64,000 nt of DNA, from assembly GCF_032118995.1 (NCBI RefSeq), contig NC_092665.1, positions 2,702,001-2,766,000 of the forward strand, in the 5' to 3' direction. The notes beneath the pieces were generated by a model. The model was not told the DNA's origin. It saw nothing but the letters and a program-made list of their open reading frames with translations, and did no database searches. This document shows positions 31,090 to 51,827 of this stretch, one piece after another. The stretch is from Asterias amurensis (taxonomy: Eukaryota; Echinodermata; Asteroidea; Forcipulatida; Asteriidae). The first letter of the stretch is position 1, and each line of letters begins with the position of its first letter. Position numbers and translations under genes: made by a program.

Positions 31090-31640
31090 CACTTTGTTTA
31101 GGGTGTGAGAACTTCTCAACCAGTCAACCAGCACTTTTCCAACATGGATGCTTAGTTTCATCTCTGAGTTGTGATATGGAGACTGGGAGGCTGAGTCAAC
31201 CAGCATCTCTCCAACATGGATGCTTAGGTCCATCTCTGAGTTGTGACATGGAGGCTGTCAGAACTGCCTACCAGTCAACCAGCACCTCTTCAACATGGAT
31301 GCTTAGGTCCATCTCTGAGTTGTGACATGGAGGCTGGGAGAACTGCCTACCAGTCAACCAGCATCTCTCCAACATGGATGCTTAGGTCCATCTCTGAGTT
31401 GTGACATGGAGGCTGTCAGAACTGCCTACCAGTCAACCAGCACCTCTTCAACATGGATGCTTAGTTTCATCTCTGAGTTGTGACATGGAGGCTGTCAGAA
31501 CTGCCTACCAGTCAACCAGCACCTCTCCAACATGAATGCTTAGTTTCATCTCTGAGTTGTGACATGGAGGCTGGGAGAACTGCCTACCAGTCAACCAGTA
31601 CCTCTTCAACAAGGATGCTTAGCTTCACAAAAACTGAGAC
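31090..31640. repeat. 79-bp minisatellite, about 7 units
   Basis: Units contain CAGTCAACCAGCACCTCTCC, ATGGATGCTTAG and TCTGAGTTGTGACATGGAGG. It lies just outside the left arm and no inverted partner is seen. Confidence 0.9.
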
Positions 31641-31679
31641 CCTTGTGTAGCCAAAATGGACATTAAAGAGGTAATGTTT

Positions 31680-32380
31680 CCCTTTTTTTAGTTTGAGGAA
31701 TTAAGAAGAAATTTCACTTCGGTTTATATTTCAAGAGAAAATACATATGAGGATTGAATTTTTTCAGGGTATGTTCAGTTTTGTGCGAATTGAAAAAATA
31801 TGATTATTTCGCCATGACTAAACATTTTGTTGGGATTATACGCTGAGAAACATATTTTAGTTTTGCTTTGAGACTGCTGTTATCAGATTGAGGAATAAAA
31901 TATAAATCTCACCTCAGTTTACAAAATTTCAGGACGTTTTTAAGTTTGATGCCAAGTGATCCAATAAATAATTTGGCCTTGCCTATCCATAACATTTCAT
32001 TGAGACTAAATTTTGTTTTAGTTTGAGGAATAAAAAATCTCAATTGGTTTAAATTTTAAGCTATAATATTTTTGAGTAATGTATGCTTCCAGGAAATTTT
32101 CCTTTTGATGGAAAGTAAAAACAGATGATTATTTGGCTTTGATTTGAATGTTGAGAGAAAAATTTTTTTCCCACATTTTTGTTAGTTTGAGGAATAAAAA
32201 AGGAAATCTCACTGTATTTTCAGTTTGATACAAAGTGACAATAGATTATTTGGCTGTTACCTGACTGTTGAGAAAGATGTTGTGTTTTGCTTTAAAACTG
32301 CAAAAGAAATCAGTTTGAGGGATAAAAAAGAAATCTCACTTGGTTTAAGTTTCAAACTATGTTTTTGATGCAGGACCTGT
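31680..32380. repeat. Degenerate A/T-rich tandem repeat (outer left arm)
   Basis: Four to five loose units of roughly 130-160 bp, each with TTTGAGGAATAAAAAAG, AAATCTCAC and a GATTATTTGGC motif. Confidence 0.5.
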
Positions 32381-32382
32381 GT

Positions 32383-32475
32383 TGAACAAAGACTAATTTA
32401 CTAACGGGGCTCGAACCAGCTGCCTCCGGATAAAAAACCTGGCACTCAACCAACTGAGCTATCTGGCCCTACATA
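32383..32475 (-). mobile_element. tRNA-type SINE head, antisense
   Basis: GGGGCTCGAACCAGCTGCCT and CCAACTGAGCTATCTGG, a well-kept tRNA-like half. Confidence 0.7.
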
Positions 32476-32597
32476 TTTGCAATCTCCCTATTTGGGCAAT
32501 ACCTTTTTTGTGTGGTTTATTTTTTTTTAGAAACACATTTTATTTCATGCATTCTTTCAGTTTGATTCCAAGTGAAATTGATTATTATTTGCACCCA

Positions 32598-32850
32598 CAG
32601 CAACATCTGATTCCTACATGGACATCCACTTCAGACTCCTACAAATACAGCAACATCTGATTCCTACATGGACATCCACTTCAGACTCCTACAAAGACAG
32701 CAACATCTGATTCCTACATGGACATCCACTTCAGACTCCTACAAAGACAGCAACATCTGATTCCTACATGGACATCCACTTGAGACTCCTACAAATACAG
32801 CAACATCTGATTCCTACATGGACATCCACTTCAGACTCCTACAAAGACAA
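32598..32850. repeat. 50-bp minisatellite, 5 units (left arm)
   Basis: Five near-identical 50 bp units with CAGCAACATCTGATTCCTAC and ATGGACATCCACTTCAGAC. The reverse complement appears, degenerate, at 47730-48060. Confidence 0.9.
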
Positions 32851-33379
32851 TTTCGATCACCGTACAACATCTGATTTGTGTGGATTGTGTAGTAAAGAGA
32901 ATCTTTTAGTCAAAGAAAAGAGACTCAAGAATAATAACCACAAATTTCTGATCTAGGAATTTTGTGTGGAAGACACCAGACAACTACCCCCCCCCCCCAG
33001 CTTGAAGGTCCAAAACATGTCCTCAAGTTTGTGATGGATAATAATTTGTTTTTTCACAACGTGATTTGTAATCTTTCAACGGCAAAGTATTCCTTTGGCT
33101 TTTTTTAACAAAATATTTTTTTGTTTTAATTTATATACAAAGTTATACAATAAATTAACTGTGAAAATTTCAATTAAAAGATGGTCACTTTTTTTAAATG
33201 TCCCTGGCAATCCCAAGCGAACGTGTCGTAATATGCAGGACTAAATAATCCCTAATAAAATACACAATCTCAGAACCATTACTGCAGTAATGCTTCTCAG
33301 ATTCAAATTTTTGGGAAAAAAACTGAAACACAATGTTTTTCAAAATGCTGCTTTCTACAAAAATTACAAAAGTTGCTAA

Positions 33380-34050
33380 TTAAAGGCAAGGTACATATTT
33401 GGTAATTGTCAAAGACCAGTCTTCTCACTTGGTGTATCCCATCATAACCATAAAATAACAAGCCTGTGAAAATTTGGGCTCAATAGGTCATCGAAGTTGC
33501 GAGAAAATGATGAAAGAAAAAACACCCTTGTTGAGCGAATGTGTGTGCTTCAGGTAGGAATACAAGACTTCTTAGCTAGAAGTCTTCTAATATTTGAGTG
33601 AGAAATTACCTCTTTCTCAAAATCTGCGCTACTTCAGAGTGAGCCGTTTCTCACAATGTTTTACACTATCAACGGCTCTCCATTACTCATTACCAAGTAA
33701 GTTTTTATGATAATGTATGTTTTGAGTAATTACCAAACGTGTACCGTCCCTTTTAAAGGCAGTGACACTATTGGTAATTACTCAAAATAATTATTAGAAT
33801 AAAACCTTAATTGGTAACAAGTAATGAGGAGAGGTTGATAGTATAAAACATTGTGAGAAACTGCTCCCTCTGAAGTGCCATAGTGTTCGAGAAAGAAGTA
33901 ATTTTCCACGAATTTGATTTTGAGACCTCAGATTTAGAACTTGAGGTCTCGAAATCAACCATCTAAACGCACACAACTTCGTGTTACAAGGGTGTTTTTT
34001 TTATTATTATTATCTCGCAAGTTTGATGACCGATTGAGCTCAAGTTTTAA
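33380..34050. mobile_element. MITE family A copies 6 and 7, back to back
   Basis: Copy 6 (33380-33756) is full length. Copy 7 starts at the shared TTAA and is truncated near 34050. Neither is present at the matching place of the right arm. Confidence 0.8.
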
Positions 34051-34569
34051 ATGATAATGTTCAAACTTAAGAATTATATATTTGTTCAGAATCCCTACTA
34101 GGATAACATTTTCCCACGTCAGAGTGTTAGTAGTTAATTGATGTCAATAATTCACTGGTAAAAAGTTGATTGTAGATATTCTAGATTTAATTAAGAATGA
34201 ACGATTAACGTAAACTTATGTTATAGCATTGAGACTTTATTGTAATTCTGCGCTATATTAAAAATGTTCATTATTATTACCGTAATAAATAAAAATGCTA
34301 TACTATTAATCTAAACCTGTTTTTGTCTGATTGTCATTATTTTGTTGCCAAACCTGTATTTATTTGTTTAAAAAGATTTATTTGACTTCATAAAACAAAA
34401 CAAAAACGTGCAAACCGTGCAATCCCTGTATTCACATTTTATAAAATAAAACAATTAAAATTAAAAATTAATTAAATTGTGTATTCAAATGAAACAGACA
34501 AACAAGTTTATGTTTCCTTGTGGCCGTGTAGACTTTGACTGGTAGTCTTGATTCAAGAATTTTATCCTT

Positions 34570-34657
34570 GAGAGAGCGCCCTCTTGTGGCAATATTAATT
34601 ACTTACGGGAATAATAATTACATATTAATTAATATTGCCACAAGAGGGCGCTCTCTC
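34570..34657. mobile_element. Fold-back element, left arm
   Basis: Stem AGAGAGCGCCCTCTTGTGGC with AATATTAATTA, perfectly mirrored after a ~30 bp loop. The partner in the right arm is 46896-46983. Confidence 0.7.
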
Positions 34658-34761
34658 GACGACTGATCCAGAGACTGACCGCTAATGTGTAGTATAGGCA
34701 TATACAGTGTGTACGTCAAACTTCGTTCTAATGTTTACCACCTAAAAAAATTTTTTTCAAA

Positions 34762-35040
34762 CCCGGAAGACGCCATAGCCTAGCGGATAAGGAGACGGCT
34801 TTGGAGGACTACACTGGAGACATCTGTGCGGGTTCGAGCCCCGGCCAGGACACCACCACCATGGAGACACCAGAGGAACGCCCACGGACCCCGGACCACG
34901 ACGAGGAGGCAACATGGCGGAGATACACCAGGGGGAGGCGTGGACCCGGAGAGAGAGAGAGGGGGGAGAGGTGGACCGGGCAGAAGGGGAAGTGGAGACG
35001 AGATTTTTTTTTTAATTAAATTTTATTTAATTTTAATAAA
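34762..35040 (+). mobile_element. tRNA-derived SINE with long-arm tRNA head
   Basis: Pol III-type head with a TAGCCTAGCGGATAAGG A-box-like stretch and GGGTTCGAGCCCC B box, and a long variable arm. A GC-rich body follows (CCACCACCATGGAGACACC, GAGAGAGA), then an A/T tail. The frames open across it are not genes. Confidence 0.75.
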
Positions 35041-35049
35041 AAAAAAAAT

Positions 35050-36870
35050 AAAAAAGTCAAAATTAACGGTGAATGGTTTTCTTAAAATCGCCTGAAACGT
35101 ACGCTCGTTAATTTTTTTTTTTTTCCATAAAGGAAAATCCAAAATTGTAAAAACTTGCAAAAATCACCACTGATTTTTTCGTTTTTTTAATTTCATTTTC
35201 TTAAAATCGCCTGAAACGCATGCTCGTTAATTTTTTTTTCAATCAAATTTTTTTGGGGAAAAAAAACTTGAAAATCACTGAAAATTACCAAAATTGAGAG
35301 TAAAAACATTTAAAACACCCTTAAAACAGTGCGTGATACACTCCAGGATATCCCTGTTGACATTCTACATGTAATAGACATTCTGGTGAAAAACAAACTT
35401 ACAGGAAAGTGTCGTATTAATAAATATTGCTTAAAATTACTCTAAGTTGGCACTTAGCGTAAGTTGTAGGTGCTTTAACTCTTTAATTTTAACAATTCAA
35501 TTGCACAGAACACATCGTTCGTGACTTCTAACCTTCAAACTTCTTATTATTTTAAGTATTACACTCAGCCTAACTGTGAATAACGAAGCTGGCATATTAA
35601 AAGCTGTTGTTTAAAAGGGGCATTCACACACATAACCTTGATATCAGCTAAGTGTATACACATAATACATGTATAGGAGAAATCAAACAAGTGTGTGAAG
35701 AAATTAGTCTGACACCTACATTAAGAACTAGTGTTGTATTACCACTAAGAGACTTGGAACCAGACTTCAAAAGATGGAGCAAAAATTGTATGGGAGCTTA
35801 CAAGGACCATCTGCATTGCCAACTTTCCATATTATATAGATCAGAAAATCATAAAAAAATACTATAACTATTTATTTTGGGGTTCTCATGGATTTGCGAA
35901 ATCTAGTTTTTCAAGATAAAATGGTAAAAAGGTACAGTACTGTACTTTCACTACTAAGAATAAAACTTTATGGAAATGCAGATGTTCACTCCAAGTTTCC
36001 ATATATTTGAAATCCATTAAAACCAAAGGCCCTGCACAGTTCGTACAATGTTTTACAGATAAATATAATCACGTGCGATACAAATACATCAAGTTTACCA
36101 CATATAAATATCAAACTAAGTATTTAAAACATTTTTCAAACTCTGACATCTGTGTAAAGTTAAGTTTTAAAACTGTACATGGTAGCCCATATGTTGCATG
36201 ATTGCTCACTACACTGCTTTGGTATTCAGTAAAAAATGTTAGTCGTAGCTAGTAGCCCTTTGTTTTCTTCATTTCATTACCCATTTTTCAGGCCTGATGC
36301 TTCATTCTTGTAAGGGCCAGAGTCTGAGGGAAATTTGAGTTAGTACCAGAACATTTCAATGGGCACCAAGGCAATGACCAATGCTGTGTGCATGGAGGCA
36401 ATTGCTGCGTAACTTGTCACTGCAAAGTATCAGGCCTGATGATTCAACAGAGCTACAAAATGTACACAACAATATTCAGCAAAGTTTTCACTTCATAACA
36501 AAAACAGCCACATAGGGCTGTTCATGGTAAAGATCTGTTTACGCAGTACACTGTGGTTTGAATAAAGTTCATAGCTTTTGAAATAAATAACAACTTTGTT
36601 TCAGTTGTAAACAGTAAAGACTGATGTCCGAGTGGTTTTATAAGAGTCCATGTAAACAGACCTTTTTACAATGAATAAACCTCTCTACGTGCTATCCATG
36701 TATGAGTGTATAAGACAACAAAGATCTGCTTAAGAAATAAAGGACTTTCAATTTTTAACGCTACAGCTTTGTAAGTTTTGTTTAACAACAAGGACTCATT
36801 TCCAAGTGGTGTCTAAGAGTCTATGTAAACAGATCTTTTACAGTAGGTAAAATTCACTACTTGAGACGTA
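35050..36870. other. Left-arm unique sequence, no gene seen
   Basis: Non-repetitive and collinear, in reverse, with 44.84-46.4 kb. It includes two copies of a GCGATTTTAAG-type motif beside AACGAGCATGCG-like sequence (35.08 and 35.2 kb). No convincing exon was found. Confidence 0.5.
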
Positions 36871-36871
36871 C

Positions 36872-38307
36872 CTTAATATCCACTATAATGTTTTCCGCGA
36901 ATAACTAACAAAGTTGAACTGAGGAAGCTTGAGACGCTGAGAAGATGACGTATTGGAATTCATGATGATGCTGCAATCTCATGGGCTCTCTTCAGTCAAG
37001 CTGATGCATCTTTCATATCAAGGCTTATCATCTTGAGTGTTCTATAAACAACATTTCAAAGCACAAATTAATGCATGAACTACATTTCATTCATAATGGA
37101 CCAAGACATGTCTTTTGGAAAACAGATCACATGTTTGGGTTAATAAAGTTTGAAGAAGGGTACACGATGTTGTCCTGTATCCAGATTAGAAAAGAGGCAT
37201 CACATTACAGATATAGATTTGAAGTAAATGTAAAAGAGGTTATAATATTGGGGAGGGTTTAGGATAGCAGATAGCAGAAAAGATGGATGCATGTTTTGGG
37301 TTGATACAGATTTGAAGTAAAATGGGTAAAATGCTAGGGGCAGGTTATGAATGGCAGACAAGGGGGTGTTTGCTTTGAGTTGAGAGGGGTAAGTTGTTGG
37401 AGGTTGGTCCTGAATGACAGACAAGAGGGGTGCTTGTTTTGGGCTGTTTTGGGGTAAGTTGTATTGGCACTGAACATGACAGACAAGGAAGGTGTGAGAT
37501 TTGGGTTGATATAGAAGGGGTAAATTGTTGGGGTTGATACAATGGTTATAGATGAAAGACAAGGGGGTGCTTGCTTTTAGTAAGAGGGGTAAGTTGTTTG
37601 GGACTCGCACCGAATGGTAAACAAGGGGGTGTATAATTTGGTATGATATAGATATGAAGTAGATGGGGATAAATTATTGGGGTTGGTCCAGTGGCCCTGA
37701 GTGACAAAAAAAGAGGGGGGGGGGGGGGTGATTTAGGTTTATATAGATTTGAAGTAGAAGAGGTAACATGTTGGGGGTTGGTCCTGAATGATAGAACATA
37801 CAGTGGTTTATGCCTGAGTGTGATTGTGATACAGTATGAAGTTAAAAGAGGTAAACTTTTGGGGTGGTTCCTGAATGAAATACGAGAGGGTGAACTTTGG
37901 ATCGATACAGATTTTAAGGAGAAAGGTAACCTATTGGGAATGGTCCAGAAATGCCAACAAGTAGGGTCTGATTTGGGGATTTAAAAAGTAGGGGTAAACT
38001 AAAATGTTTACAAGACAAGACAGGGGTGGCAAGACAGTTGGCTGATTGAACTGAAGGAAAAGGGTTAAAAAGTGTTGGCAAGTCCAAAATGGCATAGAAG
38101 TTTGGTGCATACTTTGGATTGAAAATGTAAAAATCAATGTAGAGGTACATACCTTCTCATCATGGTTTTGAATAAACAAGTTGAACTGAAGTAGCTTGAG
38201 GCAATGGGAAGATGATTTGGTTTCATGATGATGCTGCATCTCAGGGCTCTCTTCAATTAAGATGCCACATCACTTCTTCTAAGGCTTGCCATCCTTTCAA
38301 GAGTGTT
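36872..38307 (-). ncRNA. Two splice-bounded non-coding exon cassettes, left arm
   Basis: 38307-38153 (acceptor ATTTTAG, donor GTATGT) and 37041-36872 (acceptor TTTATAG, donor GTACGT) are related sequences. Both begin AACACTC and both have stops in all three frames. They are mirrored by two cassettes in the right arm. Confidence 0.45.
37250..38150. repeat. Degenerate G-rich minisatellite, left arm
   Basis: Irregular ~60-80 bp units containing GATTTGAAGTAAA, GGTAA and GTCCTGAATG. It is the complement of the unit expanded in the right arm at 40.7-43.1 kb. Confidence 0.7.
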
Positions 38308-38389
38308 CTAAAATCAGGAATTAAAACCACAATGTTAATTACAAATGAAACAGTGTGTTCACTGCTCACTAAAATTCTATTGGTTAGGT

Positions 38390-38760
38390 GGTTCTAAAAG
38401 AGGGATGCATATTTTGGATGACAACGGGTTGGTTGCAAATGGGTCCTCTTTGGGGGGAACCCTTTGAGTGCTCCTACAAAGGAGGATGTATCATTTGGGA
38501 AGGCTCTTTCCAAAGAGGATGGATGCATTTGGGATTCATACGTAATTGGGTGGGTCCTTATTGTGGGCAGGGGGTGGGGGGGGTGGTGCTTCAAGTGAAC
38601 GATGAGAGGGGTGGATATTTGGGATTGATGTTGGTTGCAGGAGGTAAATGGGTCAACAATGGGGGCGGATCTAAGTATGCTGAGAGGGGGAGGCATTGTT
38701 TTGACTGATTACACAAGGTTGTGGGTGGATCAACATTAGCAGAAAAGGGGATGAATTTTT
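38390..38760. repeat. G-rich degenerate repeat, left arm
   Basis: A few loosely related units (ATTTGGGAT, GGGGTGG) between two predicted exons. Open frames here are by-products of low complexity. Confidence 0.45.
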
Positions 38761-38951
38761 AGCTATTTTGATATTTGTTGGCAGATTATCAGAGGATGAT
38801 TCAAGGTGCAGTACAGAGCACAGAGGAATACCCACGAGGGAGGACCAAATGGGTCCATAATTAAGCGAGGCGGTCGGGGAGAGAAGAATTGGAAGAAAAA
38901 CAATTCTGGTGGAAAGATCATGACAAAATAAAATACTTCTTTGAAACTCAC

Positions 38952-39959
38952 CATCATATTTAAAGAGGTAGGGCGTGGTCCAAACTGATGATTCTTCATC
39001 CACGTGTATTCTTGGATGGTTAATGGTTGATGAGGATTCATTCCACAGATGATTCAAATGGTTCAATGCCAAAACCGAAACTAACACATCTAGAGAGAAA
39101 AAGGATAAACAAATAAAATAAGCATCTGATAATATGTAATGTCAGTTGATACATGGGGATTTTCCTTTTTAACACAAAATGGTGAGCAGTGATTTCTTTG
39201 AATCCCAAAGAGAAGACAGTTTCTCGTATAGAATCTTAGTCCTTCTTGCGTAAAACAAGTACATCTTGAGAGTTGGTCTTAGTGCTGGTATATGTCTCTG
39301 CACAAGTTGGTTCATGCACGAGTTAGCATGCGTACAAGTTGACCAGTATTTTTTCTCATACAGAGTAATATTTAGAGTTCCCGAGTACAGAGTATTGGAT
39401 GTATGGAGGGCAGAACCCTCAACAAAACCCTCCCACTCCTTCCCAAATGATACAAAAACAGTGCACACAGGAATTTTATGGGCATGGCTTGAGTTTTTTT
39501 TAGGTTGCAATTGAATTGAATGATGAAACATTAAATAAATACTATCCTGACACTGTCACTTACACTGACTGCCAGGCCCACAATGTTGTGTTCTTACCGC
39601 ACTTGCCCCGCCCCCTTCTTATCTGGTTAGGCCATTATAATTATATTGATTGGAACATGGAGGTAGACTACCTCCATGAATGATTGGAACGACACTCAAA
39701 ATCTAAACTGACAACTCGTCAGCAAAAAATAAGATTACGAAAACAAACGTTAAATAATCACATTGAATAATTGGCACAAAAACGATCCCAAAATACTCCC
39801 TTCCAAATCTTCCTATTCAAGAAATACACGTCATGTTATGTGCTATACATTCTATTTGCACTATATAAATATTTTGGGATTAAAAAACGAGCACTTACAT
39901 GAAATGTTTTGTGCTGAAAACATTTGATTTTGAAGACGATGACGGTGAGCAGACGACAT
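38952..39959 (-). CDS. Predicted two-exon small ORF at centre of inverted duplication
   Basis: Exon 1 (39959-39899) encodes MSSAHRHRLQNQMFSAQNIS and ends at donor GTAAGT. Exon 2 (39089-38952) follows TCTCTCTAG and encodes VLVSVLALNHLNHLWNESSS, ending TTPYLFKYD at donor GTGAGT. Phases agree (1 nt carried over). The next plausible acceptor (38308) brings a stop within a few codons, giving a ~69-residue product. No family is recognised. It may equally be the 5' end of a long non-coding RNA. Confidence 0.35.
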
Positions 39960-40690
39960 TATTTTGCACTTTTGGTAGACGCCGAATGCGCATGTGCAAA
40001 TCTGTTGCTGAAACAAAATGAAAGGGCGACCTCTATCGTCATAAAATTAACAGTCTGTCATTATTGCGTGGGGAAAACCCCGATGCAGTCAACATGGCGT
40101 TGACGACACACGTGGATTATAAACTGATCAACTTCAGACAATGTTTATTGCAAGACCATACGATTTCATAACCATAATGGATGTTCATCAAACCCGGAGT
40201 ATCAACCTACACCCCCAGGGTAAGTTCCAGTATTCGTACTCAACTGTAAGCTATGTTGTTTGGGGATCAAAGTGTCCTGCATTTCACTTCAGTAAGTATT
40301 TGATCAATCAACAACAACAACAACGTCTGCGAAAGGTATCTCGCGAGTGGTTAGTTTACAAACTATAGTGTAGTAGGTAGGGTTATCTTGACCTTATAAC
40401 ACTGTCTAACATGGATTTTATCTGGCATTTTATTTTAGTCCTAGCTAGAAGTAGAACTGTACCGCGAACATCATATTGATTACATCATATCTTAAAAAAA
40501 AAACTTGTTTCCCTAGCCCTTCTTCACGTTTTGTGCACACACCACGTACCGCACTACAGTTCTTGTTTTGAAACCGGATCTGCCAAAATTATAGGCTCTG
40601 TGTTTCTTGGACTTGTGGTGATCTTGGGGTTGGCCAAGAGTATTTATTCCACACAATCTTTGTAGGAAACAAATCTGCCATTTTAGACCC
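39090..40690. other. Centre of the inverted duplication
   Basis: Largely unique sequence with two divergent candidate first exons. 39960-40176 is the likely shared promoter. A short CAA run lies at 40311-40322. No arm-to-arm homology is seen here. Confidence 0.5.
40177..40219 (+). CDS. Possible first exon of right-arm transcription unit
   Basis: ATG opens MDVHQTRSINLHPQ, then donor GGTAAGTT at 40220. It diverges from the minus-strand first exon only 218 bp away. Joined to the next cassette the frame closes within a few codons, so coding value is doubtful. Confidence 0.25.
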
Positions 40691-43110
40691 GCCCCACCCC
40701 TTCTTCTTCATATCTCATAATCACCCCTCTTTTTGGCCATTGAGGACCCGCCCCCAAGAATTACCCATTTTACTTCAAATAAATCAATCCCTATGCACCC
40801 AACCTTTATGCCATTTTAGACCACCATCGACTGTTTACCCCTTCAACTTATTCCAAATACACCAGACTTTTTGGCCACCCAGGATATGCCCCTATAAGAA
40901 GTACCCATTTTATTTAAAATTATAAATCAATCCCAAATGCACCCCACTTTTCTGCAATTCAGGACCCATTTCCAACATTTTACCCAGGCTTTTAGTTCAA
41001 ATTGGAATAAATCCAATATGCATCCCACTTTTCTGCCATTCAGGACCCACCCCAAACATTTTACCCCTTTTACTTCAAATCAGATTAAATAAAATATGCA
41101 TCCCAATTTTCTGCCATTCAGGACCCACCCCCATTATTTTACCCCTTTTACTTCAAATTTGAATAAATCCAATGTGCACCCTACGTTTCTGCCATTCAGG
41201 ACCCACCCCAAACATTTTACCCATTTTACTTAAAATCAGAATAAATCCAATACACACCCCACTTTTCTGCCATTCAGGACCCACCCCCATTATTTTACCC
41301 CTTTTACTTCAAATCAAAATGAATCCAATACACACCCCACTTTTCTGCCATTCAGGGCCCACCCCCAACATTTTACCCATTTTACTTCAAATCAAAATAA
41401 ATCCAATACACACCCCACTTTTCTGCTATTCAGGACCCACCCCCAACAATTGACCCCTTTTACTTCAAATCAGAAAACAAATCCAATACGCACCCCAATT
41501 TTCTGCCATTCAGGACCCACCCCCATTGTTTTACCCCTTTTACTTCAAATCTGAATAAATCCAATATGCATCCCACTTTTCTGCCATTCAGAACCCACCC
41601 CAAACATTTTACCCATTTTACTTAAAATCAGAATAAATCCAATACACACCCCACTTTTCTGCCATTCAGGACCCACCCCCATTATTTTACCCCTTTTACT
41701 TCAAATCAAAATGAATCCAATACACACCCCACTTTTCTGCCATTCAGGACCCACCCCCAACATTTTACCCATTTTACTTCAAATCAAAATAAATCCAATA
41801 CACACCCCACTTTTCTGCTATTCAGGACCCACCCCCAACATTTGACCCCTTTTACTTCAAATCAGAAAAAAAATCCAATACGCACCCCAATTTGCTGCCA
41901 TTCAGGACCCACCCCCATTGTTTTACCCCTTTTACTTCAAATCAGAATAAATCCAATATGCACCCACTTTTCTGCTGATCAGGACCCACCTACAACATTT
42001 TTCCCATTTTACTTCAAATTAGAACAAATCCAATATGCAGCCCACTCTTTTGCCATTCAGGACCCGCCCAAGACATTATACCCATTTTACTCCAAATCAG
42101 AATAAATCCAATATGTACCCCACTTATAGCCGTTCAGGACCCACCCCAACATTTTACCCCTTTTACTTCAAATCAGAATAGATCCACTATGCACCCCACT
42201 TTTTTGCCATTCAGGACCCGCCTCAAACATTTTACCCCTTTTACTTCAAATCAGAATAAATCCAATATGCACCCCACTTTTCTGCCATTCAGGACCTGCC
42301 CCAAACATTTTACCCCTTTTACTTCAAATCAGAATAAATCCAATATGCACCCCACTTTTCTGCCATTCAGGATCCACCCCCAACATTTTACCCCTTTTAC
42401 TTCAAATCAGAATAAATCCAATATGTACCCCACTTTTCTGCCATTCAGGACCCACCCCCAACATTTTACCCCTTTTACTTCAAATCAGAATAAATCCAAT
42501 ATGCACCCCACTTTTCTGCCATTCAGGACCCACCCCCAACATTTTACCCATTTTACTTCAAATCAAAATAATTCAATACGCACCCCACTTTTCTGCCAAT
42601 CAGGACCCACCCTCAACATTTTACCCCTTTTACTTCAAATCAGAATAAATCCAATGCGCACCCGACTTTTCTGCCATTTAGGACCCGCCTCAAACATTTT
42701 ACCCCACTTTACTTCAAATCACAATAATTCAATACGCACCCCACTTTTCTGCCATTCAGGACCCACCCTCAACATTTTACCCCTTTTACTTCAAATCAGA
42801 ATAAATCCAATAAGCACCCCTCTTTTCTGCCATTCAGGACCCACCCCAAACATTTTACCCCTTTTACTTCAAATCAGAATAAATCCAATATGCACCCCCA
42901 TTTTCTGCCAATCAGGACCCACCCCCAACATTTTACCCCTTTTACTTCAAATCAGAATAAATCCAATACGCACCCCACTTTTCTGCCATTCTAGACCAGC
43001 CCCACAAATAAGTACCACTTTTTCTTCAAATCTGTATATAAATACTATATGTATCCCACTTTTCTAACATTTCAGGACCCACACCCAACAGTTTACCCCT
43101 TTTACTTCAT
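40690..43110. repeat. ~78-bp minisatellite, about 30 units
   Basis: Tandem unit with CACCCCACTTTTCTGCCATT, CAGGACCCACCCC and TTACTTCAAATCAGAATAAA. Since 78 is a multiple of 3, long open frames (up to 292 codons at 42189-43067) arise without coding selection. Confidence 0.92.
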
Positions 43111-43600
43111 TCCCTACCAAGAAAAACCATTGCAAGAATTACAAGCCATATGATGACATATTATTATTGTGAATTTGTGTTTATTTATTGTTTTCTTGTG
43201 GGGGTACATCTAAGGATTTGCCTCATGATTACACTTTGGGGGCAAGGGGCAGCACAAGGCAAAGTTTTTAGTGGAGGGGGGAGGGGCCCGGATTCCTCTC
43301 TTCACAGATTGGTGATTTACGTGTAATTTTGTTCACATGCTTGACTAAAATGTAACTCATGGGTTATTGGTTTTATTATTTCTCTTTTTAGAACACTCAA
43401 GATTATGATGGAAAGATGCACTCATCTGAAGAGATCTCAAACAGCATCACCAAGAATTTGAATACGTCATCTCCTCACTGCTTCAGGTTACTTCAGTTCA
43501 GCTTGGCTACTTTTTTTTCACTGCTAGAATTTAAAGGTGCGTCCAATTGTCTAACTTTTTTCAGTCCCAATAAGTATTAAGATTAACTTGTACTTGAAAG

Positions 43601-44093
43601 TTAAAGGGAATGTACACGTTTGGTAATTACTCGAATCAAATATTAACTTAAAAACTGACTTGGTAACGAGCATTGGAGAGCTGTGGATAGTATAAAAATG
43701 ACGCCCTGTTATTGTAACATAGTTTTTGAGTAAGGTAATTTCTCACTAAAATATTAATAGACTTCTAGCTAGATGTCTTTTATTCCTACCTGAAAGCACA
43801 CAAATGGTCCAACAAGGGTGTTTTTTTCTTTCATTATTTTCTCGCAACTTCGATGACCAATTGAGCCCAAATTTTCACAGGCTTGTTTATGCTTTGATGG
43901 GATACACCAAGTGAGAAGACTGGTCTTTGACATACTAATAGTTTCCAGTGCCTTCAACCTTTCATTATTTTCTCGCAACTTCGATGACCAATCGAGCCCA
44001 AATTTTCACAGGCTCGTTTATGCTTATGATGGGATACACCAAGTGAGAAGACATGTCTTTGACAATTACCAAACGTGTACAGTGCCTTTAAAG
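43601..44093. mobile_element. MITE family A copies 8 and 9
   Basis: Copy 8 (43601-43957), then a half copy to about 44093. They lie between the two right-arm cassettes and are absent from the left arm. Confidence 0.8.
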
Positions 44094-44116
44094 GCACTGG
44101 ACAAGGTGTGCATGGG

Positions 44117-44250
44117 CTACGAATAACTGTGTTTCCAGGGGCCAATGCCACCTACTCCTGGGACTGAAATAGTCCATACGGATGTAGCCTTTGCCTTGGG
44201 TATCATCCATTATCTGGCTGGTATAGCAGAAAGCACTACCTCCCCAGTTG
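44117..44250 (-). repeat. Dispersed repeat K fragment
   Basis: CCAGGGGCCAATGCCACCTA and CTGGTATAGCAGAAAGC match the other K copies. Confidence 0.5.
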
Positions 44251-44259
44251 TACCCAAAT

Positions 44260-44590
44260 TCTCCCCATCGTTTTGCCAAATTTTGTAGTGTGAATTGCTC
44301 CCCCCCAGGCTGTACACAAATGATTGTGTGCTTTTCTGTGATGTACTTCTATCAATGCCAGGCTGGCACCAATGTTAATTGCCCATTGTACAATGCCAGA
44401 TTTGCTCACAACTTGTCTGTTTATCTAGACTCATCTCCAATACTATTACCCCTTCGACTTCAAATCTGTATCAGTGCCAAAGATTCACAAAATTGTTCTG
44501 CCGTTCTTGACCCGTCCCCAATATATCACCCTTGGGATGTACGACACTTCTGCCAATCTGTATCCACCATCAATCATCAGCCCCTTCTAT
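44260..44590. repeat. Decayed copies of the 78-bp unit
   Basis: Fragments such as TTACCCCTTCGACTTCAAATC and TTCTGCCGTTCTTGACCC show older, diverged units between the two right-arm cassettes. This corresponds in position to 37.25-38.15 kb of the left arm. Confidence 0.5.
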
Positions 44591-44839
44591 GAACTGAATT
44601 ACACACGTCATACAATATGCAACTGTTGACATATATTTCATGCATTAATTTTGTCCTTTGAATGTTTTGTTTATAGAACACTCAAGATGATGACAAGCCT
44701 TGGTATGAAAGATGCGCCAGCTTGACTGACGAGAGCCTGTGAGATGCTGCCTCAAATTTCAAATACGTCATCTTCTCAGCGTCTCAAGCTAATTCAGTTC
44801 AACTTTGTGATTCATTCATTACTAAGATGTTAAGGTACG

Positions 44840-46490
44840 TCTCACTTAGGGAGGTTTATTTATTGTAAAAAGGTCTGTTTACCTGGACTCTTATAAAACC
44901 ACTCAGACAATCAGTCTTTACTGTTTACAACTGAAACAAAGTTGCTATTTATTCCAAAAGCTATGAACTTAATTCAAAGCAAAAGTGTACTTCGTAAACA
45001 GATCTTTACCACGTACAGCCCTATGTGGCTGTTTTTGTTATGAAGTGAAAACTTTATGCTGAATATTGTTGTGTACAGTTTGTAGCTCCTTTGAATCATC
45101 AGGCCTGATACTTTGCAGAGACAAGTTACGCAGCAATTGCCTCTGTGCACACGGCCTTGGTCATTGCCTTGGTGCCCATTGAGTATACTAATTCAAATTT
45201 CCCTCACTGACTCTGGCATTTTAATGAGAAAAGCTGCCTTGCCCTTACAAGAACGAAGCATCAGGCCTGAAGAATGGGTAATGAAATGCAGAAAACAAAG
45301 GGCTACTAGCTACGACTAACATTTTGTACTGAATACCAAAGCAGTGTAGTGAACACTCATGCAACATAGGCTAACATGTACAGTTTTAAAACAGATGTAA
45401 GAGTTTGAAACATGTTCTAAATACCTAGTTTGATATTTAATTGTGGTAAATTTGATGTACTTGTATCACACGTGATTATATTTATCTGCAAAACATTGTA
45501 CGAGCCGAGCAGGGCCTTTGGTTTTAACGGAATCCAAATGTATGGAAACTTAGAGTGAACATCTGCATTTCCATAAAGTTGTTTGCTTAGTACTGAAAGT
45601 AAATGTACAGTATCTTGCCACCATTTTATCTTAAAAGCTAGATTCCGCAAATCAATGAGAACCCCAACATAAATAGTTATCATATTTTTTTATGATTCTT
45701 TGATATTATTTAACTTGGAAACTTGACAACGCAGATGGTCCTTCTAAGCTTCCATACAATTTTTGCACCATCTTTTGAAGTCTGGCTCCAAGACTCTTAG
45801 TCCTTATACAACACTAATTCTTAATGTAGGTGCCAGACTAATGTCTTCACACACTACTACTGGTAGGCCTACAGTATGTATACACTTAGCTAATAAGTTA
45901 TCAAGTTTATGTGTATAAAGGCCCCAAACTCTTAATATATTATGCCAGCTTCGGAATTCACAGTTATAAGTTGAGCGTACATACTTTGTAATACTTAAAA
46001 TAAGAAGTTTTAAGGTTAGAAGTCACGAACGTGTGTTCTGTGCAATTAAATTGTTAAACTAGAGAGTTATACATGTAAAGCACATACAACTTACGCTAAG
46101 TGATAATTTAGAGTAATTTTAAGCAATTATTTATTAAAACGACCCTTTCCTTAAGTTTGTTTGTCACCAGAATGCCTATTACAATGTAGAATGTTAACAG
46201 GATACCCTGGAGTGTACCATGCACTTTTTTAGTGGTGTTTTAAATGTTTTCACTCACTTTTTTGGTAATTTTCAGTGATTTTCATGGTTTTTTTTCCAAA
46301 AAAAATTTGATTTCAAAAAAAATTAACGAGCATGCGTTTCAGGCGATTTTAAGAAAATGAAATTTAAAAAAATAAAAATTAGTGGTGATTTTTGTAAGTT
46401 TTTACAATTTTGGATTTTCTTTTATGGAAAGTAAAAAAAATTAACGAGCATGCGTTTCAGGCGATTTTAAGAAAACCATTCACCGTTAAT
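44840..46490. other. Right-arm unique sequence, no gene seen
   Basis: Reverse counterpart of 35.05-36.87 kb. The only open frames are short and not conserved in the other arm. Confidence 0.5.
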
Positions 46491-46499
46491 TTTTACTTT

Positions 46500-46800
46500 T
46501 TTTTTTTTTTTTTAATTAAAATTAAATAAAATTTAATTAAAAAAAAAATCTCGTCTCCACTTTCCTTCCTGCCCGGTCCACCTCTCCCCCCTCTCTCTCT
46601 CTCCGGGTCCACGCCTCCCTCTGGTGTATCTCCGCCGAGTTGCCTCCTCGTCGTGGTCCGGGGTCCGTGGGCGTTCCTCTGGTGTCTCCATGGTGGTGGT
46701 GTCCTGGCCGGGGCTCGAACCCGCACAGATGTCTCCAGTGTAGTACTCCGAAGCCGTCTCCTTATCCGCTAGGCCATGGCGTCTTCCGGGTTTGAAAAAA
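46500..46800 (-). mobile_element. Inverted partner of the 34.8 kb SINE
   Basis: Reverse-complement copy of the SINE at 34762-35040 with the same flanks. It was duplicated as part of the arm rather than inserted twice. Confidence 0.75.
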
Positions 46801-46895
46801 AATTTTTAAGGTGATAAACATTAGAACGAAATTTGATGTGCACATGTATTATATACGTATATACACAGTAGCGATCAGTCTCTTGATCAGTCGTC

Positions 46896-46983
46896 GAGAG
46901 AGCGCCCTCTTGTGGCGATATTAATTAATATGTTGTTAATAGTGCCGTACATAATTAATATTGCCACAAGAGGGCGCTTTCTC
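46896..46983. mobile_element. Fold-back element, right arm
   Basis: Same stem as 34570-34657 with a different loop. It is part of the inverted duplication. Confidence 0.7.
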
Positions 46984-47729
46984 AAGAGTATTGTCTTGAA
47001 TCAAGACTACATATCAACGCCTACTCGGCCACAAGGAAACATAAACTTGTTTGTCGGTTTTTGTTTTAATAAAAAATTTAATACGTTTGTCGTTTTTTTA
47101 AATAAAATTTGAATGAGCTAAGATTGCCTGATGTGCACGTTTGTTTCGTTTTATGAAGTAAAATAAATCTTTTTAAACAAATAAATACAGGCTTGACAAC
47201 AAAATAATGACAATCAGACAAAAATGGGTTTAGATTAATAATGTATCATTTTTATTTATTACACTGACACTAAAAATTATAATTCTTAAATGGTACCATT
47301 TTTTTCATTAAGAATCTTTAAAAAAAACAAAAACATCATTTACTTTAAAGATCATCAGTATTAAACTAAACTTAGAATAATTTTGGCAGTTACATCAGTA
47401 GGCCCCAAGTATTTAAAAGTATTTGCGCATACCACTTAATTTAAGCCTTTTGATGTGGATGCCTAAACTGGTGACATGGATCTTGAATAACCGTACAATT
47501 TCTTAAGTTTTAAACCACATAATTTCACAGTGTCACTACGATGATGCAAGTTTGAAATGGATAACTAAACACTGAATTATTTAATGTTTTGGACTTTTTA
47601 AGGATTCAATAAACATGATAAAAGAAACTTTTTAGCGTGTCCTTCAAGTGTGTACTGTCTGCTTTTAACAAAAATCCTGAATGACCGAAGTTTGTGATGA
47701 TCGTTCTTGGCGTATACATTATCTTCACA

Positions 47730-48060
47730 TATCAGATGGTACTGTCCATGTTTCAATGAGATGTTGCTGTCCATTTAAGAAAAAAAACATTGCTGCCCAT
47801 GTCGGAATCAAATGTTGCTGTCCATGTAGGAATCAGATGTTGCTGTCCATTTAAGAATCAGATCTTGCTGTCTATGTAAGAAGCAAACCTTGACGTCCAT
47901 GTCTGAATCAAATATAACTGTCCATACTGAGGAATGAGATGTTGCTGTCCAAAAAGGAATCACATGTCCATCGTAGGTATCAAATGTTGATGTCCATTTA
48001 GAAAATCAGAAATTGCTGTCCATGTAAGAGTCAGATGTCCCTTTCACATTATTCTTCCAA
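47730..48060. repeat. Degenerate ~25-50 bp repeat (right arm)
   Basis: About ten imperfect copies of TTGCTGTCCATGTAGGAATC with variable spacing. It is the inverted counterpart of the 50-bp array at 32.6-32.85 kb. Confidence 0.75.
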
Positions 48061-48199
48061 TCAGGGTAGTTTTGTCACTTTTCAAGTTGGAAATCCATGC
48101 TGCATTTGGATTCCAAAAATCCACATGAGATCTGCATTAAAAAAAAAAATGATAAATCAATTTCAAAACAACCCAATAAAATGTTTGAGGCATGGCAAG

Positions 48200-49050
48200 A
48201 ACTTTTCTTATCAAACGACCTGAAAAATAAATTGTGTTTCTCATAAAATTTAAACTTAAGAGAGAACTTTTGAAAAATTCTCACAAATTTAAGCGTCTTT
48301 ATGTTTGAGGCAAAACCAACCATTTTCAAACTTGGTATGATAATTTAATAATTATTATTGGCTTCTTATAAAGCGTGCATATCCATCACTCATCGATGCT
48401 CAAGTGGCTACGACATTCAGTTTTTCCTGCAAGAAAGTGGGACTGTGTTTGAATGATGAGATCTACTCCAGGTATAAATGACTTGGGAAAAAAATTGCGT
48501 TTCTCATCAATTATGTCAACAAATTTAACCCTAAGAGAGAAATTTTTAAAATATTTCTCATAAATTTAAAGGTCTAATGTTTGGGGTAGAATCAACAGTT
48601 TGTCTAACTTTGTATCAAAATGACCTGAAAAATTGTGTTTCTTAAACTATGTCAACAACTTTGAACATGAGAAATTTGTAAAAAAAAAGAAAAAAAAAAA
48701 TTCTCACAACTAATAGCTCTATGGATCTACTCCAGGTACAAATGACCTGGGGAAAAAATGCGTTTCTCATCAATAATGTTCACAAAATTAACCCTGAGAG
48801 AGAATTTTTTTAAATAATTCTCACAAATTTAAAGGTCTAATATTTCAGGCAGGAACAACAATTTGTCTAACTTTGTATCAAATGACCTGAAAAATTGTGT
48901 TCCTTAAAACTATGTCAAAAAATTTAAACATGAGAAATTTGTATTAAAAAAAATCAATTCTCACAGTTTTAAAGGTCTTATGTTTGAGGCAAAAAATGGT
49001 GTTTCTCGTTAATATGTAAATAATTTAAGAGAAAACTTAAAAACACATTG
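48200..49050. repeat. Degenerate ~260-bp tandem repeat (outer right arm)
   Basis: Units start near 48461 and 48723 with ATCTACTCCAGGTA. Each has two related halves (TGCGTTTCTCATCAAT and TTGTGTTTCTTAAA). Weakly complementary to 31.7-32.4 kb. Confidence 0.55.
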
Positions 49051-49109
49051 GACCTTTAATGGAGGTAGGACCAAAAAAAAAATTGCATCCATGCCCCCAC
49101 AAAGGTTGT

Positions 49110-50076
49110 GTCTGTCACAAAAAAAAAAGAATTAAAAAAGAGAACTTTTTAAAATTCTAAAAAAAGTGTTTATATAAAAACCTGTAAAACCAACCTTTGG
49201 TGTTGAAACATGTATTAGATAAACATATCACAATTCAAGTCACAGCCAAAAATGTATACAAATTTGCTTAGCATTGTGGATAAACGTGGCCTTAAAAAAA
49301 TGTGTTTCTCAAATTATGAAAAATGTGAACCAAAAATAAATTGTTGATCAGTTGCAAAAACATAATTATTTCAAAAAAGTAAACCAAAACATGTGTTATA
49401 TCCCACTCTTGAGTCGTGGCAATTTTAATTAAGTTGGCATGAAAATGTCAGAAAAACTCGTAAAATTTAATTCAAAGTTTTTAAAATTTTCCACAAAAAA
49501 AAGAAGTTAATTCATAATATAAAATACAAAACATGTGGGACCTCCTTTAAAAACTGTTTGGTCTATGGTTGGTTGGAATCTTTGATTGAAATAGATGCTC
49601 AATATGTTGAAAATCTACTGTAAAGTTTAAGCAGAGCCATCTAATCAGTTTAAGTTTTCAGTCAATTCATAAGTATCTATCTGTACACACGTACACCACG
49701 TACAATCACCCACCACAGGCCAGAGGGTTGCCGCCGTACAATGGTCAGGTACCACCGGTCAAGAGTGTACGGTGATAAGGGTCGTGTTCTCGTTAAAATC
49801 AAAACATGCAAACTACAAACATAAAGTATCAGGAAATGCGTGTTTCTTAATATATCACTCTAAAACATACCTTGATATGTCCGGTCAGCCTCTGATGAAC
49901 AGCCACATTTACAGTAATCCCATGGATGATCTTGAAGGAGACATTTTGCCTGAGTTTTTAGATGACAAAAATCGACATGATTAACGTCAAAATGTTTGTG
50001 TTTACTACATGCCTAAAACTGAGCTACAGAGGGCGCACTCCATAATAATTGTGGCGATGGCACATGTCACACACAG
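49110..50076. other. Intergenic with one short unusual ORF
   Basis: 49877-49984 encodes MSGQPLMNSHIYSNPMDD then EGDILPEFLDDKNRHD, with natural-looking acidic composition. No splice context or family is evident. Confidence 0.25.
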
Positions 50077-51055: not shown

Positions 51056-51827
51056 ATGACTACACAACCATACACAAGTCAATTGGAAGCTACACAACCA
51101 TACACAAGTCAATGGGAAACTACACAACCATACACAAGTCAATGGGAAACTACACAACCATACACAAGTCAATGGGACACTTTACAACCATACACAAGTC
51201 AATGTAACACTTCACAACCATACACAAGTCAATGGAAAACTACACAACCATACACAAGTCAATGGGACACTTTACAACCATACACAAGTCAATGTAACAC
51301 TTCACAACCATACACATGTCAATGGGAAACTACACAACCATACACATGTCAATGGGAAACTACACAACCATACACATGTCAATGGGAAACTACACAACCA
51401 TACACAAGTCAATGGACACTTAACAACCATACACAAGTCAATGGGAAACTACACAACCATACACAAGTCAATGGAAAACTACACAACCATACACAAGTCA
51501 ATGGGACACTTTACAACCATACACAAGTCAATGTAACACTTCACAACCATACACATGTCAATGGGAAACTACACAACCATACACATGTCAATGGGAACCT
51601 ACACAACCATACACATGTCAATGGGAAACTACACAACCATACACAAGTCAATGGACACTTAACAACCATACACAAGTCAATGGGAAACTACACAACCATA
51701 CACAAGTCAATGGAAAACTACACAACCATACACAAGTCAATGGGAAACTTCACAACCATACACAAGTCAATGGGAAACTACACAACCATACACAAGTCAA
51801 TGGGAATATACACAACCATACACAGTT
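51056..51827. repeat. 30-bp tandem array, about 26 units
   Basis: Unit CACAACCATACACAAGTCAA with TGGGAAACTA. Unit length is a multiple of 3, so a 341-codon open frame spans it; an occasional 29-bp unit shifts the peptide register. Confidence 0.92.

What the first reader, a model, noticed from the sequence alone, without database searches (positions are those of the whole stretch)
31680..49110. Large inverted duplication with a divergent centre
Two ~7.4-8.4 kb arms are reverse complements in collinear order across SINE, fold-back element, unique sequence, exon-like cassettes and minisatellites. They surround a ~1.5 kb centre with two divergent first exons. Either a duplicated head-to-head transcription unit or a giant long-inverted-repeat element. 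Same-sense RNAs from both arms would be homologous; read-through would make very long hairpin RNA.
Basis: partly seen in the sequence, partly recalled or inferred. Interest (0 to 1): 0.8.

Follow-up and report, generated by a model that had tools for sequence, protein, structure and literature searches.

The report
Head-to-head pair of noncoding gene copies
In what is probably a sea-star genome, the inverted duplication is a back-to-back pair of related genes that look spliced but seem to encode no protein, and they belong to a family of about 26 copies clustered mainly near one end of one chromosome.

Summary
The inverted duplication is real but is not two continuous 7-8 kb arms. One 2.5 kb core (34177-36691 / 44843-47379; 2203 of 2459 aligned bases identical) and several collinear patches match; the first exons do not. 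The window lies in a 491.5 Mb genome, probably the sea star Asterias amurensis. The core has 26 near full-length copies: 21 in the first 4.6 Mb of contig 18, four on contig 21, one on contig 7. The copies look like spliced genes without a conserved reading frame: acceptor AG in 32 of 32 aligned cassette exons, 54 of 63 exon indels frameshifting. Two unrelated first-exon types (L, R) point away from a shared centre. L-R pairs recur at three other C18 places; one shares pieces of a 19 kb block with the window, so the pair predates block duplication. Some arms are homogenised, consistent with gene conversion. Near the 3' end, 19 of 21 aligned copies (of 26) carry an inverted pair of a CTCF-like 12-bp motif. 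Best reading: a divergently transcribed pair of paralogous long noncoding RNA genes in a locally amplified family. Transcription could not be tested; function is inferred.

The parts
31100..50045 (.). Extent of the block shared, in pieces, with C18:2013076-2035329 (reverse orientation); it contains the whole head-to-head pair
   Evidence: order of the small outer pieces is not strictly collinear
39899..40033 (-). L-type exon 1 (5' end approximate), donor GTAAGT
   Evidence: 6 copies aligned, donor GT 6 of 6; identity 0.745 in the exon, 0.43 and 0.53 in flanks
38952..39089 (-). L-specific exon 2
   Evidence: 5 copies aligned, donor GT 5 of 5; identity 0.758 against 0.50 in flanks
38153..38307 (-). 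L cassette exon c1
36872..37041 (-). L cassette exon c2
34177..36691 (-). Left core (3' part of the L unit), inverted copy of 44843-47379
   Evidence: 26 near full-length copies of its inner 761 bases
34567..34660 (-). Inverted CTCF-like motif pair (short hairpin) in the left core
40086..40219 (+). R-type exon 1 (5' end approximate), donor GGTAAGTT
   Evidence: 9 copies aligned, donor GT 9 of 9; identity 0.704 in the exon against 0.48-0.49 in flanks
40902..43109 (+). 78-bp C-rich minisatellite (28.2 copies) between R exon 1 and c1; diverged G-rich counterpart at about 37142-38120
43392..43536 (+). R cassette exon c1
44677..44834 (+). R cassette exon c2
44843..47379 (+). Right core (3' part of the R unit); an AATAAA-type signal lies near 47180
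   Evidence: signal CAAATAAATACAGG or CAAATAAATGCAGG kept in 14 of 16 aligned copies that reach it
46887..46991 (+). Inverted CTCF-like motif pair (short hairpin) in the right core
32575..32824 (-). 25-bp minisatellite, inverted partner of 47743-47999
47743..47999 (+). 25-bp minisatellite, partner of 32575-32824

Best explanation
A head-to-head pair of paralogous, spliced, long noncoding RNA genes. L runs leftward from about 40.03 kb and R rightward from about 40.09 kb, probably from one bidirectional promoter region. Their bodies (cassette exons plus a roughly 2.5 kb 3' part) are homologous and make the inverted repeat; their first exons are unrelated and define two lasting types. The pair belongs to a family of about 26 copies that spread mainly by local, often inverted, segmental duplication, with bodies partly homogenised between arms and copies, probably by gene conversion. 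Each arm most likely yields a spliced, polyadenylated noncoding RNA; the CTCF-like motif pair near the 3' end most likely acts as DNA, as an architectural or boundary site. Shown by sequence: homology, copy number, exon boundaries, broken frames, recurrence of the pair, motif conservation. Inferred: transcription, promoter activity, polyadenylation, conversion as the cause, CTCF binding and any cellular role.
For: 26 near full-length copies, 21 within C18:0.117-4.568 Mb, and cassette c2 found beside 26 of 26. Acceptor AG 32 of 32, donor GT 29 of 32 cassettes; c1-c2 similarity 0.71 in exons falling to 0.27 upstream (30-60 bases) and 0.23 downstream (20-40 bases); 54 of 63 indel events frameshifting; 30 of 32 cassettes have stops in all three frames. 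First exons more conserved than flanks, with donors kept 9 of 9 (R), 6 of 6 (L), 5 of 5 (L exon 2). The window's 66-codon L frame over exons 1 and 2 stops early in the four other L copies examined (14, 24, 24 and 61 codons). L-R first exons back to back at four C18 places. Shared block 31100-50045. 1150L and 1161R bodies 97.3% alike despite different first-exon types; the window's L body is a mosaic.
Against: No RNA evidence at all. Cassettes were chosen by similarity to a probe that includes splice sites, so part of their conservation is ascertainment. No convincing acceptor for a terminal exon was found. Within-pair identity is not the highest for the window, 1573/1583 and 2017/2028 pairs, so homogenisation is not general. 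Sixteen of 26 copies have no inverted partner nearby by position. The C21 pair departs from the pattern: its L exon 2 and weak R-like exon 1 are on the same strand. The inverted motif pair is absent from at least 6 of 26 copies.
Confidence: 0.68

Rival explanations
1. Decaying pseudogenes: unprocessed duplicates of a former protein-coding gene, now unconstrained, with exons still recognisable.
For: Frames are broken in nearly every cassette, no transcription evidence, seven ORFs of the window other than the GPCRs had no Pfam match, three of them in this region.
Against: Between cassettes that differ at about 29% of exon positions, the acceptor AG is kept 32 of 32 and donors nearly always, while intron flanks are unalignable; first exons and donors are kept across about 25-30% divergence. 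No intact coding member was seen, but no coding relative was searched for by protein.
Confidence: 0.17
2. A transposon-like giant long-inverted-repeat element.
For: Many copies, also on three contigs; repeats and minisatellites inside.
Against: 21 of 26 copies in under 1% of the genome; 16 of 26 not in inverted pairs; no common outer ends; no transposase-like Pfam match among the ORFs tested. Target-site duplications were not examined.
Confidence: 0.05
3. A source of hairpin RNA: read-through across the centre folds the two cores into long double-stranded RNA that feeds small RNAs.
For: Inverted cores of 2.5 kb at 90% identity.
Against: Transcription from the conserved first exons runs outward, giving same-sense RNAs from both arms; 16 of 26 copies lack an inverted partner. 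Not testable here without RNA data.
Confidence: 0.07
4. Assembly artefact: a false fold-back or uncollapsed haplotypes.
For: Inverted repeats are a known source of mis-joins (general knowledge).
Against: Arms differ by about 10% with different first exons; no N in the window; L-R pairs with their own divergence recur at three other C18 places. If the genome is that of PMC10625585, it was built from HiFi reads with purging of haplotypic duplication.
Confidence: 0.03

Closest known systems
Multi-copy (ampliconic) gene families in palindromes, best known from mammalian sex chromosomes (PMC3403216 and PMC4772468: search listing and start of abstract only; noncoding TTTY families recalled)
   Same: Inverted duplicates carrying gene copies, local amplification, arms partly homogenised in a way that fits gene conversion.
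   Different: Here the centre holds two unrelated first exons, arms are only about 90% alike in the window, most copies are single, and the contig is not known to be sex-linked: the published candidate sex region of A. amurensis is at 7-12 Mb of chromosome 10 (PMC11757944, abstract; correspondence of contig numbers to its chromosomes was not checked).
Divergent (bidirectional-promoter) gene pairs / divergent lncRNAs (recalled)
   Same: Two units start within about 50 bp to 1.7 kb of each other and run apart.
   Different: Usually the two partners are unrelated; here the bodies are paralogous while the first exons are not.
FIRRE-type and macrosatellite-linked noncoding loci with CTCF-like sites (recalled)
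   Same: Noncoding-looking unit with repeated exon cassettes, internal tandem repeats and CTCF-like motifs.
   Different: No sequence relation tested; here the motif pair is inverted near the 3' end. [quoted passage not shown]

Membership tests
Long noncoding RNA gene | No conserved open reading frame | tested here: met
   54 of 63 exon indel events frameshifting, stops in all frames in 30 of 32 cassettes; longest spliced ORFs 65 and 69 aa in the window; L frame not kept in 4 of 4 other L copies
Long noncoding RNA gene | Conserved splice sites / gene structure | tested here: met
   acceptor 32 of 32, donor 29 of 32; first-exon donors 9 of 9, 6 of 6, 5 of 5; terminal-exon acceptor not identified
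Long noncoding RNA gene | Is transcribed into RNA over 200 nt | not testable with these tools
   no RNA data available
Ampliconic palindrome gene family | Several inverted gene pairs by local duplication | tested here: met
   five inverted pairs by position, 10 of 26 copies
Ampliconic palindrome gene family | Arms kept alike by gene conversion | tested here: inconclusive
   1150/1161 97.3% alike and mosaic pattern in the window's L body, C21 pair 93%; but three pairs are not most alike within the pair; no formal recombination test
Long-inverted-repeat transposon | Dispersed copies with constant ends | tested here: not met
   21 of 26 copies in under 1% of the genome; no common outer end
Long-inverted-repeat transposon | Target-site duplications | not tested
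   not examined
Structured RNA / microRNA hairpin (short hairpin at the 3' end) | Compensatory changes in the stem, or an Rfam match at gathering score | tested here: not met
   of 58 changed flank cells 39 break pairing, 16 keep it by one-sided change, 3 by two-sided change; 0 Rfam matches at gathering score; sub-threshold microRNA models only
CTCF binding site (motif pair) | Match to the CTCF core CCACYAGRGGGCGC (recalled) | tested here: inconclusive
   family core CCACAAGAGGGCGC differs at one position; consensus 192 matches genome-wide against 2 for the reversed control, family 15-mer 100 against 0; binding not testable

The most novel reading that the evidence does not exclude
A new sea-star family of noncoding RNA genes on a 'two promoters, one body' plan: two unrelated promoters are kept head-to-head while the transcribed bodies are kept alike by arm-to-arm conversion, and in the main C18 group each body ends in an inverted CTCF-like pair, so that the pair forms a self-contained, insulated chromatin unit amplified along one chromosome end.
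Probability: 0.15. Interest if true: 0.7.

Novelty: new member of a known kind. Interest (0 to 1): 0.45.

Why it matters
If transcribed, the family is a natural experiment: the same RNA body under two unrelated promoters, about 26 copies of graded divergence, and inverted pairs of different ages in which arm-to-arm conversion can be measured. The 12-bp core, exact in the first half of 21 of 21 and the second half of 19 of 21 aligned copies, is a concrete site to test for CTCF binding in an echinoderm, where the role of CTCF is open (PMC13317027, passages).

Tried and rejected
Rfam at gathering score on the whole window: 0 matches; with a lax threshold on 33000-49200, 14 matches, mostly long-stem microRNA models below their cut-offs, taken as an effect of any strong stem. 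Pfam on nine ORFs of the window: the two GPCR ORFs matched, the other seven did not. The short hairpin as a structured RNA: not the leading reading, for lack of compensation. An acceptor for a terminal exon: six weak candidates, none convincing. A link to sex determination: the paper's region is on chromosome 10 (abstract), no support. Literature searches that listed nothing on this family: starfish multi-copy lncRNA, Asterias with lncRNA, palindrome / head-to-head / lncRNA / CTCF (no paper held five terms), ampliconic palindromes, echinoderm CTCF, starfish genomes. 'Undescribed' is a statement about these searches of one open-access library only.

Rows left out: one search compared 19 of 26 copies (those with letters in hand). 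One search used 32 cassettes chosen by similarity. One search aligned 21 of 26 copies, chosen by score; the five left out are the 1573 copy and the four C21 copies. One search used 19 of these 21 and located the motif by an exact 12-base search, so invariance inside that core is by construction; the unbiased figure is 21 of 21 exact first halves and 19 of 21 exact second halves. Of the five copies left out, four were looked at: 1573 has one exact core, two C21 copies have one exact core plus a poorer one in the same orientation, one C21 copy has only two poor ones; the 14627 copy was not in hand (one exact core). In one search the exon-2 cut of the 1583L copy failed (3 bases), but its frame already stops inside exon 1.
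Full report
WHERE. The window is C18:2702001-2766000 of a genome of 491,506,623 bases in 23 contigs. The size fits Asterias amurensis (491,537,102 bases in 22 scaffolds; PMC10625585, abstract and assembly section), as does the repeat content, which I only recall. The totals are not identical, so the species is an inference. The window has no N.

OBSERVATION. The inverted duplication is real. Its only long continuous stretch is 34177-36691 against 44843-47379, with 2203 of 2459 aligned bases identical (about 85% with gaps counted). Further collinear matches are cassettes c2 and c1, a patch 37206-37362 / 44412-44562, a 25-bp minisatellite, and a diverged pair of G-rich/C-rich minisatellites. The outer 1 kb, the piece between core and 25-bp minisatellite, and the first exons are at or near shuffle level. 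Homologous patches therefore span about 5.8 kb on the left and 4.6 kb on the right. The roughly 300-bp fold-back repeat is in different places in the two arms.

FAMILY. A 761-base probe from the left core gave 42 matches: 26 near full length, one of 171 bases and short ones (40 of 371 candidates were scored, so this is a lower bound). Twenty-one of the 26 lie at C18:0.117-4.568 Mb, four near the end of C21, one near the start of C7. A probe over cassette c2 finds it beside 26 of 26, with additional cassettes at several. By position and strand, ten of the 26 form inverted pairs about 10 kb apart: C18 1.150/1.161, 1.573/1.583, 2.017/2.028 and 2.737/2.746 Mb (the window), and C21 14.627/14.637 Mb. 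Sixteen stand alone at this resolution.

EXONS WITHOUT A FRAME. Thirty-two cassettes align over about 160 bases. The acceptor AG is present in 32 of 32, the donor GT in 29 of 32; two exceptions are alignment gaps and one is a changed base. Comparing 12 c1 with 19 c2 cassettes, similarity is 0.71 in the exon and 0.70 in the ten bases before the acceptor, then 0.54 and 0.27 further upstream; downstream of the donor it is 0.40, 0.37 and 0.23. Homology is thus bounded by the splice sites, though the cassettes were picked with a probe that includes them. Of 63 indel events against the consensus, 54 shift the frame (counted per copy, not independent), and 30 of 32 cassettes have stops in all three frames. 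R-type exon 1 (9 copies) has identity 0.70 against 0.48-0.49 in flanks, donor GT 9 of 9; L-type exon 1 (6 copies) 0.745 against 0.43 and 0.53, GT 6 of 6; L exon 2 (5 copies) 0.758 against 0.50, GT 5 of 5. The longest spliced ORFs in the window are 65 aa (R) and 69 aa (L). The L frame starts at an ATG shared by the L copies, which could have spoken for a peptide, but in the four other L copies examined it stops after 14, 24, 24 and 61 codons, with different residues. I conclude that these are spliced units without a conserved protein. Transcription is not shown.

THE PAIR IS OLD. L and R first exons lie back to back in the window (about 50 bp apart), near C18 1.578 and 1.156 Mb (about 0.4-0.5 kb) and near 2.023 Mb (about 1.7 kb). 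Window 31100-50045 is matched in pieces by C18:2.013-2.035 Mb, and the 1.57-1.59 Mb block matches from 34045 inward. So the pair existed before these block duplications. On C21 the two inverted bodies are 93% alike over 3470 aligned columns; the L exon 2 and a weak R-like exon 1 (63%) between them are both on the minus strand, so that pair departs from the pattern.

MIXING OF ARMS. In the first 1.6 kb of the 3' part (19 of 26 copies), 1150 (L first exon) and 1161 (R first exon) are 97.3% alike, closer than either is to any other copy compared. The window's L body is closest to 2017R (94.6%), then 1583L (94.0%) and 1161R (93.6%); it is 97% like 1583L at its start and 98-99% like 2017R, 1161R and 1150L around bases 900-1050, where 1583L is 91%. 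The window's R body is closest to the 3409 copy (94.3%); L and R of the window are 89.3% alike. Within-pair identity is not the highest for the window, 1573/1583 and 2017/2028 pairs. Homogenisation is clear for one pair, gene conversion is the likely cause, and it is not uniform.

MOTIF PAIR. Near the 3' end lies an inverted repeat of GAGAGCGCCCTCTTGTGGC. A 32-base pattern from it (up to 2 mismatches) has 23 matches genome-wide, all on C18 within about 1.5 kb of a family copy, against 0 for the reversed control. Of 21 aligned copies, 21 have the exact first 12-base core and 19 the exact inverted second one; the 4138 and C7 copies lack the second. Of the five copies not aligned, 1573 and three of the C21 copies lack an exact inverted second core, and one C21 copy was not in hand. 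The inverted pair is thus a feature of most C18 copies, not of the whole family. Next to the core, 39 of 58 changed cells break pairing, 16 keep it by a one-sided change and 3 by a two-sided change; this fits two protein-binding sites better than a conserved RNA stem but does not exclude the latter. The 15-mer core occurs 100 times genome-wide (reversed control 0), 62 of them outside the family by my count of the list. A recalled CTCF core, CCACYAGRGGGCGC, occurs 192 times (control 2). The family's version differs from it at one position, so CTCF is a lead. [quoted passage not shown]

VERDICT. A family of spliced, apparently noncoding genes that the literature searches listed in Tried and rejected did not turn up; the reported palindrome is one of its head-to-head L-R pairs. 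It is ordinary in kind (amplified genes in inverted duplications, partly homogenised) and unusual in detail (unrelated first exons on homologous bodies; a strongly kept motif pair). Expression and function remain open. After checking, I lowered confidence in the best explanation slightly (to 0.68), because the motif pair is not family-wide and the C21 pair departs from the pattern.

Noticed in passing
window 3527-15309 (-): Five long single-frame ORFs in tandem that look like intronless rhodopsin-type GPCR genes; two of the five were scanned and both match Pfam 7tm_1.
   Followed up: partly
window 8567-8889, 11140-11474, 13691-14025, 21272-21642: Roughly 300-bp self-inverted (fold-back) repeats, three of them in the stretch of the GPCR ORFs.
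   Followed up: no
window 33380-34048, 43603-44091 and other places: A fold-back repeat family with about 75-90% identity between copies, several in the window; probably a MITE-like element (recalled resemblance to asteroid repeats).
   Followed up: no
window 56033-60341: A 4.3 kb A-rich satellite array, period about 100 bp, GC about 27%.
   Followed up: no
window 51059-51824: A 30-bp minisatellite of 25.6 copies that reads through in several frames.
   Followed up: no
G000:C21:14614387-14655996: R-type first exons at 14616186 (-) and 14648963 (+), very similar by eye, flank the C21 inverted pair, suggesting a larger palindrome of about 40 kb.
   Followed up: partly
genome-wide: CCACYAGRGGGCGC, mostly as CCACTAGAGGGCGC in the places listed, is about 100-fold over its reversed control: a candidate sea-star CTCF consensus.
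   Followed up: no
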